Shown: in pieces, positions 30,535 to 54,298 of the stretch | Layout: each line of letters starts with the position of its first letter | Position numbering within the stretch: the stretch's first letter is position 1 | DNA from: Kondoa malvinella | Lineage: Eukaryota > Basidiomycota > Agaricostilbomycetes > Agaricostilbales > Kondoaceae | Assembly (NCBI GenBank): GCA_039545315.1 | Contig: BCIM01000014.1 | Span: forward strand, 310,001-374,000 | Direction of reading: 5' to 3' | DNA: 64,000 nucleotides | The notes under the pieces: generated by a model | The model's database searches: none | What the model saw: only the letters and a program-made list of their open reading frames with translations | What the model was told of the DNA's origin: nothing | Translations under genes and position numbers: made by a program

Positions 30535-32321
30535 ATGTTCAAGTCCACTCTCGTCTGCCTTGTGCTTGCACTCTCCGTTCAAGGTGCTGTCCTTCCCCGC
30601 AACAACGGCGGAGACAAGTGAGCTCTTGTTGTCCGTTGCTTTACAGGCTTCCCGCTGACTGCCTTTGTCTGCTAGACACCCGTTCGTCAAGCATTGGTTT
30701 GACCCGCTCTCCAACTAATATGCGAGTAGGGAACCTCAAATCGAGTACAAGACTGTAACTAAGGAGGTCGAGAAGCCAGTATAGTGAGTTTTTTATGATG
30801 CATTATCGTTACAGTGCTGATTAGAAGCTCTGCATAGCAAAACGTTCGTGTTGCCCAGCCGCATTGCCGATGTTGCTTACGGTGCGCATGCAGTGTTCAC
30901 AAGACCGAGTACAAGACCGATGTCAAGTACCAGACGTGAGGGATACTAGCTGTATTACCGGATCTCGAGCTTATTTGACTTTTCTACAGGAAAATTGAGT
31001 AGCAAGTCCCCCTTGATTTCTACCACTGCTTCTTCTGACCTTTCCTTCCCCTGCAGCAAGACCAAGACTCCAGCTCCGGTCACGTATGTATCGTGTCAAA
31101 GATGTCCGAGGCTTGCTGAAATCATCAATACAGCAAACATGAAACCAAATATGAGACCAAGACTGTCAAGGCCGATCCTATCACAGTGACACCTGCTCCA
31201 GAGGTCAAATAGTCAGTTTTACCCCTCACTGAGTCAATAACTTGCTGATTTTCGCTTTCATCTGCAGCGTAACCAAGCAGTACGCCGCCAAATTTCTTGC
31301 TCAGTCCCTGGCTGCTTGCTTATGTTTGCATGCGTAGCGAGACTAAAACCGTTCAAGCCCCAGCTGTGACTATCACTCCAAAGGCATCCACGATCTAGTA
31401 AGCTCTTCTTCCTATCAGCGATCACATTGGCTGATCTTTCGCTCTTCCCGTAGCAAAACGTAGCATTTCTGTCTTCCACCTCTTGCCGTCGGTCCTGACA
31501 TCTTTCTCTACAGCGAAACACCCAAGGCTTCCACAAAGTACGAGACAAAGTATGAGACAAAGCAGTGAGCCTACAGCCTTCCATCCTGCCTGAAAATGAC
31601 GCTGACCTGCTGCCTTTACTCAGTGAAACGTAATTCAGCCACTCACATGCTTGAAAATGTGCTGATGCCTTGTCCTGACTGCAGCAAGTACGTCGACAAG
31701 TACGTCACCAAGACGTAAGTTCATCCTTATTCTTGTCAAGATTATGCTGACTTTCAGCACAGTGAGGAGAAGAAGGTTTATGTCACCAAGAAGCCTGAAG
31801 CCACAACTGTCTACAAGGAGCCCAAAACGTAATTCGCTCTTACTGCTTGTCCTATCCGTGCTAATCTGTCGGAATAGTGTCACAGTAACCGCTCAGCCAA
31901 AACCAGTCTGCAAAAAACATGTCGAATACTACGACGAGAAGGCTGGCAAATGCCTACCAGTCTGCAAGGAACACGTTGAATACTACGACGAGAAGGCTGG
32001 CAAATGCCTACCAGTCTGCAAGGAACACGTTGAATACTACGACGCCAAATCCGACTCCTGCCTTCCAGTTTGCAAAGAGCACGAATACTACGATGAAAAA
32101 TCCAGCAAGTGCGCTCAAGTTCCAAGATGCAAGGAACATGAATACCTTGACGAGAAGAGCTACACTTGCAAGCCCGTCGCTGAACAGAAGCCTGAGCCAA
32201 AGAAGGATGACGGCAAGACAGAGCACGAGGACAAGAAGGAGTGAGTGCTTGCTTTACTTGCTTTAGCCCGACTGACCAGACTATCTTCCTCAGGTACCGC
32301 CGTCGCGCCATCTGGGCTTAG
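30535..32321 (+). CDS. Secreted repeat protein encoded by 17 phase-2 (micro)exons
   Basis: I do not recognise the family. Exons: 30535-30617, 30676-30696, 30730-30783, 30838-30843, 30894-30935, 30990-30998, 31057-31083, 31134-31211, 31268-31279, 31338-31397, 31454-31459, 31514-31564, 31624-31629, 31685-31714, 31763-31828, 31878-32240, 32294-32321. This gives 942 nt, 313 residues. All 16 introns are GT-AG, 33-59 nt, and all interrupt codons after base two, so each internal exon (6 to 363 nt) is a multiple of three. Exon 1 encodes a signal peptide (MFKSTLVCLVLALSVQGA). The middle is Tyr/Lys/Thr/Val-rich with Y-x-T-K and ETKYETK motifs. Exon 16 encodes five Cys repeats of about 18 residues (CKEHVEYYDEKAGKCLPV). 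The end is basic (YRRRAIWA). Likely a cell-surface or extracellular protein. Confidence 0.85.
30838..31629 (+). other. Span of three 6-nt microexons (30838-30843, 31454-31459, 31624-31629)
   Basis: Each is flanked by AG before and GT after, with introns of about 50-59 nt on both sides that have their own branch-like sequences. Two have the same sequence, CAAAAC; the third is TGAAAC. Each adds two codons' worth (K-T or E-T in the Y-K-T / H-E-T pattern). Omitting one leaves the frame open, so sequence alone does not prove inclusion. Confidence 0.65.
31903..32178 (+). repeat. Five tandem 54-60-nt coding repeats (Cys-His-Tyr repeat)
   Basis: Units start at 31903, 31957, 32011, 32065 and 32119. 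Each encodes P-V-C-K-x-H-(V)-E-Y-Y-D-x-K-x-x-x-C. Units 1 and 2 differ at only a few bases, and units 2 and 3 share their first half exactly, which points to recent duplication; units 4 and 5 have lost the Val after His and have diverged. Confidence 0.9.
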
Positions 32322-34457: not shown

Positions 34458-35611
34458 CTACGCTGTTCTTCGCCTTAGCTCCTCTAATCTTTCTTTCGGC
34501 TGTTTCGCATTTCCATTCCATCTTTCCGTTGTCTTGTCGTATGAGCAAATGCCATACTGTTCTAGCACTAGAGAAGCTGAAACACTGCCATACAACATCC
34601 CTTCTAGCAAGTTGTCTTGATGTAAAGATAGACCAGCGATTAATCCTCCCTGCCATTCGATTAGCTCTATGCCATATTGGAGCGTAGATCATACCAAGAA
34701 AGCATTTCCAGCACCAGTAGGATCCACAACCTTCTTCTGATCTGTCGTGTATGGACGAACCCAAAAGACTTTGCCTCCCTTTTCCAGTCCACAGCTACCA
34801 AGGCTCCCTGATCTCACGATAACTCTCTTTGCTCCCATACCAACAAAGTCTCTACATAGCTTCTCGATTGATTCCCCACTTCCATCGCCTGGACCGAAGA
34901 ATGCTTGCCCCTCTTCATGATTCGGCGAGAACACATGTACTTTCCCAATCACCTTTCTCAAGTTTTCCACTTCGCTAGGCAGACAAAGATCCGGTATAGG
35001 TTCATAGACAATCTTCGGGTTCCAGTTGAGTGCTTCCAATTCGTCTAGAATAGAAGCTAATCGATCCGGAGCGCAAACGCAATGTAGATAATCCGCTTGT
35101 AATTCAGGGTGAAGATCAGATGGTTCCAGTCGACGCTTGGGTGTCAAGTAGGCAAAGTCTCGGCTTTCGCCGTGGTAGGTGTTTATGGCTTTCGTAGTAA
35201 GACGAGTTTGGTCATTGCGGTAATGAAAGATGTTTCGGAAGGTATTGAGTTGCTCTTGGATCCAGGAAGGCCAGTCGGAGCCTCTGTCGATAATCATACG
35301 GACTCGGTTCGCTGGTAGCCTGGCTTAGGGTCAGTCAGTATGCAGAAGAGACCCGAAAGGACAGACCACATGTCTGCGCCTAGCGCTACATAGACACCTC
35401 CACCACCTGATACGACACATAAGAGAGGGAACAGCGCTGAAGGCGATCAAGCTACCTATAGCCTCGTCTGGTACACCCTTGGTATCGAAGGAAGCTTCTC
35501 GGACGTCAAAGGTGTCAACGCTACACCAGCCATGAGCACAGAAAGGTTGCTGATAAGAAAGGAGACGCACATGAACATACCAAGAGTGGTACATACGAGT
35601 TGATCTGGCAT
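34458..35611 (-). CDS. pfkB-family carbohydrate kinase, Mak32-like
   Basis: Ribokinase-fold kinase related to yeast Mak32, a protein linked to maintenance of the killer virus; its substrate is not known. Start MPDQLVCTTLGMFIVDTF is joined in phase by an intron starting gtgcgt; then GGGGVYVALGADM, LPANRVRMIIDRGSDWP, HVFSPNHEEGQAFFG, and the signature VVDPTGAGNAFLGG with the catalytic aspartate region DPTGAGN completed across the last intron. The end is YGSVSASLVLEQYG...RLEELRRRTA. About 320 residues, five exons. Confidence 0.88.
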
Positions 35612-38705: not shown

Positions 38706-41678
38706 ATGGCCGACGAGTGAGACATGCGAGCGCGCTTTGGAGCATAGCTGAGACATGGAACAGACAGGATGAGCTCATGCCGTCGCAGCAAAGCAATCAG
38801 CCGCCTTTTACGCAGATAGACAACGAACAGGTCGAGCCTGAGAATTGCATCAAAGCGAGTTGGCATGACGCGTGTTTTGCGTCTGGATTGATGTGGCCGC
38901 CGTACACAGATCTTGCTGGCAACAGACAACCACATTGGGTACAGCGAGCGCGATCCTGTCCGTGGTCAAGATTCAATAAACACCTTCAAGGAAATTTTGG
39001 AGCTCGCAGTCGAGAATGATGCACGCCTATACGCTGTCTAGAGAGGTAAAGAGCTTACCTATTGATGTTGCAGGTCGATATGCTGCTTCTGGCGGGCGAT
39101 CTGTTCCACGAGAACAAGCCGTCAAGAACTTCCTTGTATCAGACCATCTCTCTTCTGCGCGAACACACCCTAGGCAGAAAGCCAGTCAGCTTGCAACTTG
39201 TCAGCGATGCTGGTGTGGGCCTGGGACATCAGTACAGGTTCGGTTGCATGAGCCGCACAGGGCACCTAAGCTCATGCATTCTGTAGCTTCCCGCAGATCA
39301 ACTACGAAGATGAGAACTTTAACGTTGGACTGCCCGTCTTCTCTATTCATGGCAATCACGATGATCCTCAAGGCTCTGGACCTGTTTGTCGTCATTCCCA
39401 GGGCATCACGAGACGCTCATCTTGTTGCAGGATGGAGCTCTCTGCGCTTTAGACATTCTGTCTGCTTCTGGCTTACTCAACTACTTTGGTCGTCAAGAAC
39501 TCCCTGGTGGAGCTGAAGATGACGAAGAAGCTGTAGACCAAGGCATTCAAGTCAAGCCTGTGCTGCTTCAAAAGTGAGTCTGCATTGTTGAGAGCGCTCG
39601 TAGCTCTTCTTGATGCCAAGCTCTCACAGAGGTCGCACCAAGCTCGCCATGTACGGGATAGGCAATGTCCGCGATGAGCGCTTTCACGCCGAAATGCGTA
39701 AACAGCGAATCTCAATGTTTAGACCTGAAGAAGATCCAGACTCGTGGTTCAACCTGCTTCTTATACACCAGAATCGCGTAGCGCATGGACCAAAGAGCTC
39801 TGTTCCTGAAAATGGTTTCGGTGATGAAGTCCATCTGGTAGTTTGGGGGCACGAGCATGATTGTCGGATCACGCCTGAAGATGTCACTGGGAAGAACTAC
39901 AAGATCTGTCAGCCTGGTAGTTCTGTCGCTACTTCGCTTGCTGCTGGTGAATCTTTGACCAAGTGAGCACTTTCCTCTCCCGGGATGACACTGAGCTTGA
40001 TTCATAGACACGTTGCGCTACTAAAGATCCAAGACACAAAGTACAACGTCGAGCCTATCCAGCTACGTACCGTCCGACCATTCATCTTTGACGACGTCTG
40101 TCTCGCTGAAGCAAGAGAAGATGGTGTCAAGCTCGATACGAAAGTGCAAATCACAAAGTACCTCAAAGAGCAAGTCGAACAGCTAGTAACGCGTGCAAAC
40201 CAGATGTGGGACGAATCTCACGGTCCAGAAGAGGAGCGGATGTTGCCTCTGATTCGTCTCAGAGTGAGCAGGAGATTTAGTGCGGAAGATTGAGCTTAAG
40301 TTGGTCTTCTACTCACAGGTCGACTTCAGTCCTTCTGGTCCAGATGAAAACTTTGATGTCGGCAACCCTCAACGCTTTGGTGTGCAATTTGCGGACAGGG
40401 TAGCGAACCCGAAAGACATTGTCCAATTCCACAAGAAGCGAGTCATCAACCGTGCGTGGTCACATTACTCCGTTCAGATTAGTCTGATTAGATGATTTAC
40501 ATGTCACAGGCAAGAAGAAGATCGCAATGGATCAGCCTGAAGACTTTGAACAAGATGACGATGGCGGTATAGCAGACGAATCAACAGGTCGTATCGATAA
40601 AGTCAGAGTCGAGCAGCTAGTGCAGCAGTACCTCGAGGCACAGCAGCTTCAGGTCATCCCAGAAAATGGCATCATGGCTGCGGTAGAGGAGTTTGTTGAC
40701 AAGGATGACAAGGACGCGATCAAAGAGTGCGTCGTACACTTCTGATGCATGAGAACGATGCTTAGGATTTGCGCAGGTTTGTCAAGACTTCGCTGGGCGA
40801 AAGACAGGCAAACATCCTGAACAAGGTCATTGACGTCAATCTTGATTCGGAAGACGAGGTTATGGCTCAGGTAGGCTGCTCTTTGGCACTTGGGGCTTCG
40901 CTTATGGTACGAGACGAATCGCTTACAGATCACTGAAGCAAAAGGTGAAGCGGTCGATGAATTCGCGGCCAATCCAACTCTCAAGGTGAGTAGCTTCAGC
41001 ATTTGGATATTCGCACTCTGATGTTAGACGTCTACTTGTAGAAGGGAAAGAAGACCAAAGCTGCGAAGGGAAAGAGCAAAGCTGCAACAAGTGACGAAGG
41101 TAGCGATTTCGAAAAATTGTCCGACAGTCCAAAAGGCAAAAAGAAGGCTCCAGCTAAGAAAGCCACTGCTGCTTCTAAAAAGAAGAAAGAGGAGCTAGTA
41201 TGTATCCAATATTGCTGGATGCATTTCAGTTGATGCTTGATGCTCTGCAGTTCAACGAGGATTCGGATGACGAGTCTGATGAAGCGCCGAAAGGCAAGAA
41301 GAAGGCCGTGTACGTTATAGCGATCTCACTGAACTATGAAAGCTCACTGCATACATAGAGCAAAGAAGGCAACGCCTAAAGCCGCACCCAAGAAAGCAGC
41401 CCCGAAGAAACAGTGAGTGTTCGAGAGATCCAGGGTGCGATCTCTTTGACTTTCCCATACAGGGCTACAATCGACTTTGCGCCTCAAAGAGGATCTCGAG
41501 CTGCGTAAGTATTTATCAGGCTTTGATCCGGACATGATCTGACATTTCGCTTCACAGCGCGACGAAGGCTTCCAAGAAGATGGCTGTCGAGGTCCCTGAC
41601 TCGGATGAGGACGACATGAGCGTCGACTACCAGGGCTCTTCGAGTGATGGAGCATCAAAGAAGAAGTCGAAGCGGTAG
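38706..41678 (+). CDS. MRE11: Double-strand break repair nuclease Mre11
   Basis: Nuclease subunit of the Mre11-Rad50-Nbs1/Xrs2 complex. Start [16 protein letters not shown] leads by a GC-AG intron (38855-38909) into [11 protein letters not shown] (phosphodiesterase motif I). Then come [18 protein letters not shown] (II), [11 protein letters not shown] (III), [14 protein letters not shown] (IV), VVWGHEHDC (V), [13 protein letters not shown], and the capping domain. The C-terminal 200 residues are acidic then Lys/Ala-rich ([16 protein letters not shown]) with [15 protein letters not shown], the usual DNA-binding tail. About 730 residues in about 14 exons. The junction after AVEND (about 39018) is ambiguous: a gtctag donor adds five residues, a weak GC donor adds none. 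Confidence 0.95.
38855..38909 (+). other. GC-AG intron in MRE11
   Basis: 55-nt intron starting gcgagt and ending acacag. It joins PENCIK to [11 protein letters not shown] in frame; no GT donor nearby preserves motif I. Confidence 0.85.
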
Positions 41679-49416: not shown

Positions 49417-51373
49417 TCACTTGGTCTTCTTCTTCTTCTGCGCAGCAGTCGACACACCACCACGGAAGACTTGCGCATTGATTTTGCTATCTCTAATTTG
49501 AGCTTGACTTCTTCCGCATCAAAACCAGGCGTACCTCAATCGAGCAGTAACAGCCAACCAAACAATCTTGGCGACGGTAAAGTTAGGCCAAAACATGTCG
49601 ACTCTGCTTTGGTAGACTCGGTAGAGCGGGTACTTGGATGAAGAGATGTGTTCCGTCAAGAGGGTGGATGAATACTGTACGATGGGTCAGGATACATCCT
49701 CCGAGGAAATGTCTGACTGTACGCACAAAGAGGATAGTGACAGCGATTGGTGAGAGCAGAGAGTAGTTGATAAGATGAGGACCTATGCGATAGATGAGCT
49801 GGAGCACGCGATCTCCAGATAAAAGACCTACCGGTCTCTTTAGCCAACTCGATCAAGCTATCCGTGTCGATGCTCTTGTTGTCAATCGACTTGCTAGTGA
49901 TTTGTTGCAGAGCAGAGAAGAGGTGTGTGAAGACCGCCTTTGGTACAGTTACGCGCAGAGTGAAGAGGTACAAGACCCAGTAGCTTTGCATTACGCATCA
50001 GTCAGATTCCATACTATGAAGGCTGTACTTACTTGAACTGCTCGCAGGCAAAGTTGGGGTGTCTGGACCAAGCGAAAAGTCCATCAGTTCGGAAACCTCG
50101 GTTCATCTTGCCAGCTGCGATAGTTTGTTCATGCTGCGATTTACCAACAGTCTTTTCGCGAAGCTTAGGGTCGCGCTTCCAATTCTGTCCAAGATACGAT
50201 GTCACGTTCAGCACCGACACATCATTGAAGTGAGTAACGACTGACCTGGTACTCTTGTTGCTGGTTATCACCAATCTCCTCAATGACCAAAACAGTCAGG
50301 AAAAGACCAGCAATGACACCATCGACCCAGTTGAGTGGTGGAGGAGCATGAGTAGGGTGTCGGTTCGCTCGAGCGGTCATGAGCAGGTATTGAGGTAAAG
50401 CCATGACGACAAAGAGGATCTGTACGACCAAAAAACAGCGCTTAGTCGCATGAAGCGACAAACAACAGTAGGGTCCGTACGTTTTGCATAAAGGCGATAA
50501 ATGTAAGGGCCAAGATCTTGAACTGCCATTTGGACAATCTCTGTCTCAACCAAGGCCAACGATAATCTTCTTCCACAAACGAGGTAAAGAAGCCTCTTCC
50601 AAGGGCATGAATGGTCAGACGAGCACACCAAAGGACTTGCAAGACGACAATCAACATCATTCTTGGGTCGGTCCCTTCTGGCATGAGCATTTCTTGCCAG
50701 GTCGAGTTGCGACCGGTGTAGGAGAGGAATGTTTTGGTGAATGTGCCAGCGTGCAAGTGGTCATAGAAGGTATAGTGGATGGTGTATGCCAAAGCTGCGC
50801 GCGCGAATGAGCCCTTGTACTTAGTTGTCGTGAGCTGTGCACTTACGGATGAAAGTCCACAATCTGTCCGTACAAGATTCAGCAAGTCTGAAATCAGACA
50901 TGATGAAAGCAGCACGGACCGATCGACCACAGACGCGTTGCCAGTGATTTCACCCACAATCCAGCAAAAGACAGAAAGGTAGAAACAAGCTCCCAAAACG
51001 AGGTTGAAAGGATCGTGGGTCATGTACCAATTGGATACATGCCCGTTAAAGTTGCGTAGCGTGTCCCATGAGAAGATGGAGACTGCTACATCGTACAACT
51101 TGTCGGCTTCAGATCACAACATCAGCACACTTTTGACCGGAAAGAATATGGACTCACCTGTGAGATCAGCGACGTTGACGCCTTTGGGTAATAGTTGATT
51201 ATAGTGCAAGCCCAAGCCGTCGCCATTATTGAGGAAACGATGTAGCTTTACTCGTCCAAACGGTCAGCCGCCATGTCAAGCTCCAATTCTGGCAAAGCAC
51301 TCACTTGAGGCAAGACATGGTTATGCGGGTCCAACGCAGGATGCAGCTTGGTTACGTGATGCAGGCCCAACAT
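49417..51373 (-). CDS. DUF1295 (steroid 5-alpha-reductase-like) membrane protein
   Basis: Multi-span membrane protein of the DUF1295 family, related to steroid 5-alpha and sterol reductases; substrate unknown. Start ATG 51373 (MLGLHHVTKLHPALDPHN) follows an in-frame stop. Visible: YMTHDPFNLVLGACFYLSVF, CWIVGEITGNASVVDR, AALAYTIHYTFYDHLH, ILFVVMALPQYLLMTARANR, EEIGDNQQQEYQ, and the family hallmark FRTDGLFAWSRHPNFACEQ. The C-terminal part gives YRVYQSRVDMFWPNF and a basic tail (STAAQKKKKTK), a possible ER-retention-like end. About ten exons. Its 5' end lies 90 bp from the stop codon of the next minus-strand gene. Confidence 0.85.
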
Positions 51374-51463
51374 GTTGTCGAGTCGGCCGTTCGTTGAATA
51401 CAAGCGAATGACGTTTTAGACAAAATGGCTGAACATAACTACTACACATACAAGACAGCACTT

Positions 51464-52956
51464 TTAACGTACAACTTTCCTATCTTCGTCGTACACCGCT
51501 ACGGTTACAGGTTTCCTATCAACCTCGTTCCCTTCCCGATCGAGGAAAACTAGTTTCGCTTTCGTTGCCAAAGGTTTCAAATCATTCACTGGATCTGTAT
51601 CGTCCATCACATCTGGTGGAAGAGCGATAGCGCCGATAGAGTTCTCGTTTGCTGCGTCGGCAAGTTCGTTCTTCCAGGCGTATCGGATGAGCTAGCCCCA
51701 GAAATTCGTCAGAATACTAGGCTGACAGGGTTGAAGTGTACACTTACGACTGGAATGAGCACAGCTGCTATGATTCCTCCTAGACCGAGAATATTCTTGA
51801 TCTGAGAATGATCATGTCATGGGTTCTGAAAAGTCAAAATGTACCCGAACTGACCGAAAACAAGTGGAAATCGGCTGTACTGCTCATTTCATCCAACGTC
51901 AAGCCAATGCTGACGTGCTATACTCCGGAAATCACTTTAACCTGGGTTCAGGGAGCAATGGAATAGGCGACGCACAATATACGAAACACCCATGACGCCC
52001 AAGAAAGTGGATATCCAAAACATGGGCAGGCTAATTCCCAAATGCGGGCAAACGATATTAACTACCCAATGCTGCGTTCCATCCTTAATCAGAAGTTTGT
52101 TATAGGGAAGAAGAGCACACGCACAGGAGGTAAAGGCGCGATCCTCAATACAATCATATAACTAATCAGATTCTCATTTTGGGCTGCTATGCGAGTCTTC
52201 CATGCTTCTAGTCGATTACGCCAACGGGAAGAAGCGAGTAGTAAAGCTGGACCGAGCGAGGCGGAAAGGAGGTAGCAGAGTGAAGCGCCTGATGCGACGC
52301 ACTGCATAAAATTAGTATAGAGAAGGGAGAACGGAAAGAGATACTCACAGCGCAGACGAGAAACAACGCTTTGAAGCCGTACATTGCTCCAGAGAGGATG
52401 GACAAGTACATGCTCCCAGGCAAAGAGAATGCTTGGAGAAATAGATCTGGACCACCGATCAGTTGCATCACCATCTGGGAGACCAGAAACATACAAACGA
52501 TAGTAAAGCTACTCAACACTCTGACACTGTTGCGCTCTTTGTAAATCTGCAAGACGGCGTTTAGATTCTTGAGATCTTCAAAACTCTTTGGTATTTTGAC
52601 ATGCTCCCTATCCGCGGCGTCTATAGGCGGCAACAGAGTCTTCAAGCTAACGACCATAAAGATGATGGAGAGGGCAAAGATGAGAAGGAAGCGTAAAGCC
52701 GCGCCGAGTAAAGGTCGAGTGCTTCGTTGGTGCTTCAGCCAAGGCGTGTATGAGCGCGGTGCTTTCCATATCAACACAGGCGTTGGCTCTTCAGACTCTT
52801 CTGGTACGCCTAGAGGCATGTCTAGCGAAATGGTATCGCTCAGATAGGAAGTGCCTCGACTGATCAAGCTCGGTCTCTTTGTATGCCTATCCCACCGGCG
52901 TGTATCAGCTGTGCTCTGATCCGTGTCTGTTCGATGAGTTGCTCTCACTTTGACAT
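51464..52956 (-). CDS. VTT-domain (SNARE-associated Golgi / TMEM41-like) membrane protein
   Basis: DedA/VTT superfamily membrane protein; animal TMEM41B is an ER phospholipid scramblase used in autophagy and lipid-droplet formation. Seen: ALRFLLIFALSIIFMVVSLK, FTIVCMFL, FSLPGSMYLSILSGAMYGF, SLCYLLSASLGPALL, and SYMIVLRIAPLPPHWVVNI with the conserved Arg, then HLGISLPMFWISTFLGVMGV. After the last span an extension follows (LIRYAWKNELADAANE, PDVMDDTDPVNDLKPLATK) ending KVVR. About seven exons. The likely start is ATG 52956, with a 35-nt intron giving MSNTADTRRW; MPLG at 52819 is the alternative. The start lies 22 bp from the start codon of the divergent CNS1-like gene. Confidence 0.85.
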
Positions 52957-52978
52957 GACGGAATAGAGCGGCCGTACA

Positions 52979-54298
52979 ATGACAACCTCAAGAGTTGCCC
53001 CAAAACCACTAAGCCCTGACAGAATGATCGGACCGGAGCCAGATGCGCCAGACTTTAGCGAGATGGACAACATTCCGCTGTTCATGAAGCGAATGCCAAC
53101 ATCTGGGCAAGGTCAAATAGAAAATAACCCAGCTTTAGAAGCTTTGCAATCTCTAGTGTACGAAGGGGGTCCAGAAGGTACGGTCCTTCTGCTACGACTA
53201 CATGCGCAAGAGCTGATGACGAGGGCGAAGGACAGCTACTGCCGCAAACTTGAAAGAGCAAGCGAACGAGCAATACAAGGCTAAAAGGTACAAAGAGGCA
53301 TCAGGGTTTTATTCCCAAGCTATACAAGAACTAGGACAAGATTTGGCAGTCAATACTTTGAGGACTTTGCTCGCGAATAGAGCTGCATGTCAACTTGAAT
53401 TGCGTACTGGCCCCCTCTTTATTCTACCAGACACAACTGACCGTGTGATAGAAAACTACGGCTCATGCATAAAAGATTGCGCATCAGTCTTTTCGACCTC
53501 AGTAGATCCTATAGCTACCGAAGAAGAACGAAAAACCTACGAAGCAACTTCTCGCAAAGCTTTATTTCGATGTGCGAAAGCTTTAAACGCTTTAGGGAAA
53601 TACGATGAAGCTTTAGACGCCTTGGAGAGGTTGGGTGAAATGTCTGAGAAACCGGATGTGGCCGCGAGTGCGCTTTTGGAGTCTATTAAAAAGAAACTGG
53701 CTGCTGGGTTAAAAGCGACGCAGGAGAGGGAAGCTAGGGAGGATGCAAAGAGACGACAAGATCTAGCGCTTATTACTCGATTAAAAGTGCGTTTCTTTTC
53801 CCTTTACCTTGTTTGAACAAGCTTTAATACTATGAGAAGGAACTCAAAATCTCCCTTCCGCCTTCATGGACTTACGACCAAGCTCGGTCACTTGCACCTG
53901 GTGATTTCGCCCCTCCACAATTCTCTGACTACCCATCATCCACAACGATTCTCTTCCCCGTTTTCCTACTTCGACCCTATTATTCTCCGCCAATGCGTGA
54001 TTTCATACCCAATTGGTCAGACGATACTACACTGAATGAACAGCTTCAAATCTTGACGCAGCAAGACCCTTCTTTCGGTTCATTAGAATACTTTACCATT
54101 ACTAAAAAAGGGAGGATACTGAAAATAGGGCGGAAATTATCTCTTGCTCAAGTATGCAACGCCGCGCATAAAGAAGGGGACGGGATGGAGTTGGTTGGTG
54201 GGTGGAGTTTGGAAGTCTATGCTTTGCCTGGTGAAAGAGCAAAAGAGTGGGCGGAAGAAATGAAGCTTGATTTGAGGAAAAGAGGGTTGATGGGATAG
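52979..54298 (+). CDS. CNS1: TPR co-chaperone Cns1/TTC4
   Basis: Hsp90/Hsp70 co-chaperone with an N-terminal TPR domain and a C-terminal wheel domain. The N-terminal segment has FSEMDNIPLFMKRMP and NPALEALQSLVYEGGPE. An intron (about 53180-53230) joins this to ATAANLKEQANEQYKAKRYK, the start of the TPR repeats (EASGFYSQAI, TLLANRAACQLEL, ALFRCAKALNALGKYDEALD), followed by a charged helix. A second intron (about 53787-53837) leads to the wheel domain (SLPPSWTYDQARSLAPGDF, TTILFPVFLLRPYYSPPMRD, DPSFGSLEYFTITKKGRIL). Ends LDLRKRGLMG. About 405 residues, three exons, few introns for this region. Convergent with NDUFA12, 33 bp between stop codons. Confidence 0.93.

What the first reader, a model, noticed from the sequence alone, without database searches (positions are those of the whole stretch)
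30535..32321. Fungal gene with 17 all-phase-2 exons, many of 6-66 nt, resembling a micro-exon gene
All 16 introns interrupt codons after base two, and every internal exon is a multiple of three (21, 54, 6, 42, 9, 27, 78, 12, 60, 6, 51, 6, 30, 66, 363 nt), so any single internal exon can be skipped and the frame stays open (I checked all 15 single skips; only joins of exons ending TA to exons starting G would make a stop). The product has a signal peptide and a repeat-rich secreted body. This is the layout of the micro-exon genes of schistosomes, which produce variant secreted proteins by exon skipping. It suggests a gene built to vary its secreted product, or one grown by tandem exon duplication.
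Basis: partly seen in the sequence, partly recalled or inferred. Interest (0 to 1): 0.9.

Follow-up and report, generated by a model that had tools for sequence, protein, structure and literature searches.

The report
Fungal secreted-repeat gene with tiny exons
A fungus carries a gene, predicted to encode a secreted repeat protein, whose best-fitting model has 17 exons, six of them only 6-12 bases long and all cut at the same codon position, likely because intron-bearing repeat units were copied rather than to make variants by exon skipping.

Summary
The gene is real. Four protein fragments from a marine-eukaryote assembly (source 'merc') share 25-28 of its first 28 residues and read on where the window has introns, so they are most likely spliced products of relatives. 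In the best model all 16 introns are phase 2 and 48-59 nt. Homologues firmly support micro-exons 4 and 6 (4 of 4), weakly 9 and 13, and give little or nothing for 2 and 11. The host looks like an intron-rich basidiomycete (5.8S judged by recall), a group with published micro-exons. The real oddity is the uniform phase: phases in a 264-kb sample are near one third each, longest same-phase run 7. The schistosome MEG criterion fails: 11% of coding bases lie in 6-36-nt exons, against about 80%. No exon skipping is shown; known differences between relatives lie in stretches that are single exons here. Best reading: a constitutively spliced repeat-protein gene whose introns share a phase by repeat ancestry. 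Its layout most resembles aphid bicycle genes, probably by convergence.

The parts
30535..30617 (+). exon 1 (83 nt): start codon, hydrophobic signal region, AVLPRNNGGDK
   Evidence: 25-28 of 28 residues shared with P0001, P0002, P0004, P0005
30676..30681 (+). micro-exon 2 (6 nt, ACACCC), optional or doubtful
30730..30783 (+). exon 3 (54 nt)
30838..30843 (+). micro-exon 4 (6 nt, CAAAAC)
   Evidence: 0 of 2000 shuffles; supported by 4 of 4 merc homologues
30894..30935 (+). exon 5 (42 nt)
30990..31001 (+). micro-exon 6 (12 nt, GAAAATTGAGTA), followed by GC-AG intron 31002-31056
31057..31083 (+). exon 7 (27 nt)
31134..31211 (+). exon 8 (78 nt)
31268..31279 (+). micro-exon 9 (12 nt)
   Evidence: 0 of 2000 shuffles; weak support from P0001 and P0002
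31338..31397 (+). exon 10 (60 nt)
   Evidence: little or no support from homologues (0-5.5)
31454..31459 (+). micro-exon 11 (6 nt, CAAAAC), signals only
   Evidence: shuffle P 0.0045; donor score -0.9; no homologue support
31514..31564 (+). exon 12 (51 nt)
31624..31629 (+). micro-exon 13 (6 nt, TGAAAC)
   Evidence: shuffle P 0.001; P0002 supports, P0001 barely
31565..31684 (+). introns 12 (31565-31623) and 13 (31630-31684), similar to each other: trace of a duplication round micro-exon 13
   Evidence: alignment score 34.5; maximum of 741 control pairs 24.0; family-wise P 0.010 in 500 shuffles
31685..31714 (+). exon 14 (30 nt)
31763..31828 (+). exon 15 (66 nt)
   Evidence: P0001 spans it
31878..32240 (+). 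exon 16 (363 nt): five Cys repeats, each predicted as a beta-hairpin
   Evidence: repeats; P0011 has three repeats; model mean pLDDT 77
32294..32321 (+). exon 17 (28 nt) with stop codon
   Evidence: no homologue covers it

Best explanation
This is a real gene, predicted to be secreted, that is likely spliced the same way each time, and its introns likely share one phase because repeat units that each carried an intron were copied within the gene. The protein has a signal region, a Lys/Thr/Tyr-rich repeat body with no predicted fold, and five Cys repeats predicted as beta-hairpins; an extracellular or cell-wall role is inferred. Thirteen of the 16 introns split a Thr, Tyr or His codon after its second base, at the same place in the short Y-K-T-like unit, so any exon between two of them is automatically symmetric, and the tiniest exons are single two-residue units left between two introns. 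Splicing of micro-exons 4 and 6 is shown through homologues; constitutive splicing of the whole chain is inferred. Relatives vary mainly by gain and loss of repeats in the DNA (inferred from two cases).
For: Homologues P0001, P0002, P0004, P0005 align to the window only as spliced products: P0001 recovers introns 3-9 and 12-15 (11 of the 15 it spans) at three intron penalties, scoring 625.5 against at most 280.3 for 20 shuffled bodies. Micro-exons beat shuffles. All 16 introns are phase 2 while phases in the sample are 0.35-0.38 / 0.30-0.31 / 0.32-0.34, 29-35% of internal exons are symmetric and the longest same-phase run is 7. 13 of 16 junction codons are T, Y or H, which make up 53 of 168 residues of the body. 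Introns 12 and 13 resemble each other. Length differences among relatives lie inside single window exons. Micro-exons, 17-22 exons and a GC-AG intron beside micro-exons are published for basidiomycete yeast bglA genes (PMC9142197, passages).
Against: Only one intron pair is clearly similar; pair 8/10 is not significant once branch point and composition are kept (P 0.10), and no two-intron module shows (468 of 924 permutations as good), so the duplications would have to be old or few. Exons 2 and 11 lack homologue support and their introns score below all 39 training introns. P0002 aligns with four introns that are not in the model. Donors after the six micro-exons are weaker than those before them (all six below all six, P 0.002; P 0.008 on the intronic part), which could mean regulated inclusion. 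No RNA from this genome was seen. The gene finder and sample are rough.
Confidence: 0.58

Rival explanations
1. The gene works like a micro-exon gene: the spliceosome skips or includes the tiny symmetric exons, giving a set of secreted variants from one gene.
For: All 15 internal exons are symmetric; 30,404 of 32,768 skip combinations stay open. Donors after all six micro-exons are weaker than donors before them. Exons 2 and 11 are left out by most homologue alignments. Signal region conserved, body variable among relatives.
Against: Symmetry follows from uniform phase alone. Exons 4 and 6 are supported by 4 of 4 homologues. The two clear length differences lie within single window exons. Exon skipping is uncommon in fungi (recalled). 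No skipped and unskipped pair from one sequence was seen.
Confidence: 0.17
2. The introns were gained separately, for example as introner-like copies, always at the same short site in a repetitive coding sequence; the repeats supplied the sites and so the phase.
For: 13 of 16 introns sit in T, Y or H codons; most intron pairs are no more alike than shuffles. P0006, a distant relative, has an open frame across a stretch that matches window exons 1-5, but whether its contig is genomic or cDNA is unknown.
Against: Introns 12 and 13 are alike.
Confidence: 0.2
3. Some micro-exons are not exons: the larger exons are real, but exons 2 and 11 and perhaps 9 and 13 are chance signals inside introns of 110-126 nt.
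For: Exons 2 and 11 have little or no homologue support and the weakest donors but one. About 5% of predicted introns in the sample are longer than 89-93 nt at two settings.
Against: Shuffle tests 0-0.5% for every micro-exon; both halves of each gap make an intron of normal length.
Confidence: 0.25
4. There is no gene: the chain is an over-fitted set of splice-like signals.
For: Stricter gene-finder settings miss it.
Against: Homologues at E 1e-52 and 2e-33 with the same signal region and body; spliced alignment far above shuffled controls.
Confidence: 0.01

Closest known systems
Aphid bicycle genes (PMC9168663, passages)
   Same: About 17 exons, many micro-exons, almost all internal exons phase 2, signal sequence, divergent body. 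With the published gene-structure coefficients this gene gets probability 0.79 (0.21 without exons 2 and 11); 0 of 63, 42 and 28 sample genes reach 0.5.
   Different: A fungus, single copy in its genome against hundreds of family members; Lys/Thr/Tyr repeats; no sequence relation was found or expected.
Schistosome micro-exon genes (PMC5825161, passage)
   Same: Symmetric exons down to 6 nt; predicted secreted product.
   Different: 11% of coding bases in 6-36-nt exons against about 80%; no skipping shown.
Basidiomycete yeast bglA genes with micro-exons (PMC9142197, passages); Phanerochaete P450 genes (PMC1184071, passages)
   Same: Many introns of about 60 nt (45-55 in Phanerochaete), exons down to 5-6 nt, a GC-AG intron beside micro-exons in two bglA genes.
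   Different: Those are enzymes; no uniform phase was mentioned in the passages seen; here the product is repetitive.
SP7-like effectors of arbuscular mycorrhizal fungi (PMC11333574, passages)
   Same: Signal peptide followed by hydrophilic imperfect repeats.
   Different: Restricted to Glomeromycotina; one conserved intron before the first repeat is the shared trait described, not a run of tiny exons.
Microdochium bolleyi hypothetical protein P0003 and environmental P0007, P0008
   Same: Secreted-looking proteins with KYETK repeats.
   Different: Match only over short repeats (P0003 E 0.43); no Pfam family for P0003 or P0007 (P0008 not submitted).

Membership tests
Schistosome micro-exon genes | about 80% of coding region in symmetric exons of 6-36 bp | tested here: not met
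   105 of 930 bases, 11%
Schistosome micro-exon genes | secreted or membrane-anchored product | tested here: inconclusive
   hydrophobic N-terminus, predicted helix in the homologue P0001; no signal-peptide program was run
Schistosome micro-exon genes | protein variants by alternative splicing | not testable with these tools
   no RNA from this genome
Aphid bicycle genes | internal exons almost all phase 2, many small exons | tested here: met
   15 of 15 internal exons; structure classifier 0.79, or 0.21 without exons 2 and 11
Aphid bicycle genes | Cys-Tyr-Cys motifs and membership of an insect family | not tested
   C-x-YY-x-C spacing is visible in exon 16, but no alignment to bicycle proteins was made; the host is a fungus by its rDNA
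Basidiomycete genes with micro-exons (bglA type) | exons under 30 bp between introns of about 60 nt, occasional GC-AG intron | tested here: met
Introner-like elements | introns with near-identical copies elsewhere in the genome | tested here: not met
   whole-gene DNA search hit only itself; short introns limit its sensitivity
SP7-like effectors | conserved repeat-end island and conserved intron before first repeat in Glomeromycotina | not tested
   passages only; host rDNA looks basidiomycete (recalled)

The most novel reading that the evidence does not exclude
A fungus has independently evolved the bicycle or micro-exon gene plan: a secreted, fast-changing repeat protein built from a run of phase-2 exons, with weak donors after every tiny exon tuned so that two-residue blocks can be included or skipped at will, giving a combinatorial family of cell-surface proteins from a single gene.
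Probability: 0.14. Interest if true: 0.8.

Novelty: new variant of a known kind. Interest (0 to 1): 0.47.

Why it matters
If the copied-unit reading holds, the gene shows how uniform intron phase and micro-exons can arise as a by-product of repeat growth, which warns against reading symmetric micro-exons as evidence of variant generation. If skipping is found, it would be a fungal counterpart of bicycle and micro-exon genes. Either way such genes are likely missed: stricter settings of the gene finder built here lost this one, and I found no named database protein for it.

Tried and rejected
No gene or artefact: rejected by the homologues. Paralogues in the genome: protein search of the own genome gave 8 matches, all within this gene (its query used the 9-nt exon 6). 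A search with a piece of P0007 found nothing, without a positive control. Two-intron module (micro-exon plus neighbour): no signal, 468 of 924 permutations. Scan for chains of strong introns: the gene reached chains of 4-5, no more than other places. Pfam: nothing for the product (best NUDE_C E 7.2) or for exon 16 (best E 0.41). Solved structures by sequence: 0 matches. Foldseek in the PDB with the exon-16 model: 0 of 220 matches at E 0.001 or better. The model of P0001 is of low confidence (pLDDT 38.8), so no fold is claimed for the body. The tails of P0002 and P0005 leave the frame; whether that is mis-splicing, an indel or misassembly could not be told.

Rows trimmed before counts: the merc proteins were used without their 5' leader translation, P0002 without its last 15 residues, P0005 without its last 9, P0004 without its last residue. 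Training introns: 39 of 60, chosen by a motif score and by length 44-65 nt, so their typical length is partly by construction.

Literature: nine paper searches. No fungal gene with uniform-phase micro-exons appeared in the listings, but I read passages only, of nine papers. That 'merc' is built from metatranscriptomes is recalled; the passage seen says only that the marine eukaryotic reference catalog was assembled by Plass (PMC10864179).

Full report
What is in the sequence. At 30535-32321 (+) a chain of 17 exons gives one open frame with a hydrophobic N-terminus. Intron 2 fits better as 30682-30729 (48 nt) than as a 33-nt intron, and exon 6 fits better as 12 nt with a GC donor. The corrected coding sequence is 930 bases, 309 residues. 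All 16 introns lie in phase 2 and measure 48-59 nt. If kept in the mRNA, 14 of 16 bring a stop at once and the other two shift the frame (made before exon 6 was corrected).

Is it more than chance. Splice models were trained on 39 introns from 264 kb of this genome. The gene's introns score 9.7 to 23.4; random GT-AG pairs have a median of 4.5 and a 99th percentile of 18.5. Introns 2 and 11 score below all training introns. For each of six micro-exons (2, 4, 6, 9, 11, 13), 2000 shuffles of the gap gave an equal or better one in 0 to 0.5%.

Spliced homologues. Searches of 5.8 billion proteins gave P0001 (E 1e-52) and P0002 (E 2e-33) at first and, with an alignment, P0004 and P0005, all from the source 'merc'. 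I recall this as a marine eukaryote catalogue built from metatranscriptomes; a passage in PMC10864179 confirms that it was assembled by Plass. All four begin with Met-Gly, which I recall as the mark of a template-switch cDNA adapter. Their first 28 gene residues match the window in 25 to 28 positions, while residues 29-95 match in 44/60, 43/60, 38/60 and 32/41. A splice-aware alignment of P0001 chose introns 3-9 and 12-15 at three penalties, replacing 1-2 and 10-11 by other introns. Forbidding single exons shows firm support for micro-exons 4 and 6 in 4 of 4 homologues, weaker support for 9 and 13, and little or none for 2 and 11. P0002 used four introns outside the model. A more distant relative, P0006, supports exon 4 (7.5-11.5) and not exon 2. 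P0011, from a 944-base contig, corresponds to exon 16 and seems to be bounded by introns 15 and 16 as in the window (inferred from its first and last residues), with three Cys repeats instead of five.

Genome background. The 5.8S gene next to the 18S end on contig C4 looks basidiomycete to me (recalled pattern). In rough gene predictions, phases are near equal, 29-35% of internal exons are symmetric, and the longest same-phase runs are 7 (two settings) and 3 (third setting). Exons of 15 nt or less make up 27 of 500, 3 of 224, 2 of 130 and 1 of 58 internal exons at four settings, this gene left out. So exon number is not remarkable here; the uniform phase and the cluster of tiny exons are. Published basidiomycete yeast bglA genes have 7-22 exons, up to 10 micro-exons under 30 bp and, in two of the four genes compared, a GC-AG intron beside micro-exons (PMC9142197, passages), and Phanerochaete P450 genes have exons down to 6 bp (PMC1184071, passages).

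How it likely arose and works. Thirteen of the 16 introns split a Thr, Tyr or His codon, at the same place in a short Y-K-T-like repeat. Introns 12 and 13, on either side of a 6-nt exon, resemble each other: 34.5 against a maximum of 24.0 in 741 control pairs and family-wise P 0.010 against shuffles that keep branch point and composition. The other pairs are not individually beyond the family-wise limit, and no two-intron module was found. I therefore favour copying of intron-bearing repeat units, partly old, as the cause of uniform phase. Symmetry of the exons follows from that and needs no selection for skipping. Relatives differ inside single window exons: five against three Cys repeats in exon 16, and ten residues within exon 3. 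One result points the other way: donors after the six micro-exons are all weaker than donors before them (P 0.002; 0.008 on the intronic part), as regulated inclusion would need.

Product. The body is 20% Lys and 21% Thr without Cys; the C-terminal part has ten Cys in five repeats. A two-sequence AlphaFold model of exon 16 gives five beta-hairpins (mean pLDDT 77, pTM 0.46) with no significant fold match. The P0001 model is of low confidence. A role at the cell surface or in the matrix is inference.

Comparison. The schistosome micro-exon gene criterion is not met (11% against about 80%). The aphid bicycle structure classifier, with coefficients taken from the passage, gives 0.79, or 0.21 without exons 2 and 11, while 0 of 63, 0 of 42 and 0 of 28 sample genes reach 0.5. 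The likeness is one of layout; membership is not claimed. [quoted passage not shown]

Noticed in passing
window 49417-53073 (-): A predicted membrane-protein gene with 18 exons and seven phase-0 introns in a row (rough gene finder).
   Followed up: no
window 39019-41678 (+): MRE11-like gene (PF04152, PF00149).
   Followed up: no
window 34689-35297 (-): PfkB-family kinase fragment.
   Followed up: no
L030 845-2505: The 18S match to model positions 1362-1831 is spread over 1661 bases, so the 18S gene at the end of contig C4 seems to carry insertions.
   Followed up: no
P0007 and P0008 (database proteins): KYETK-repeat proteins whose listed frame appears to run through an intron into shifted repeats (read by eye); similar genes may be misannotated elsewhere.
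   Followed up: no
P0001, P0002, P0004, P0005: All four fragments begin with Met-Gly, as expected if a template-switch adapter was read as coding (recalled), which would mark true mRNA 5' ends.
   Followed up: no
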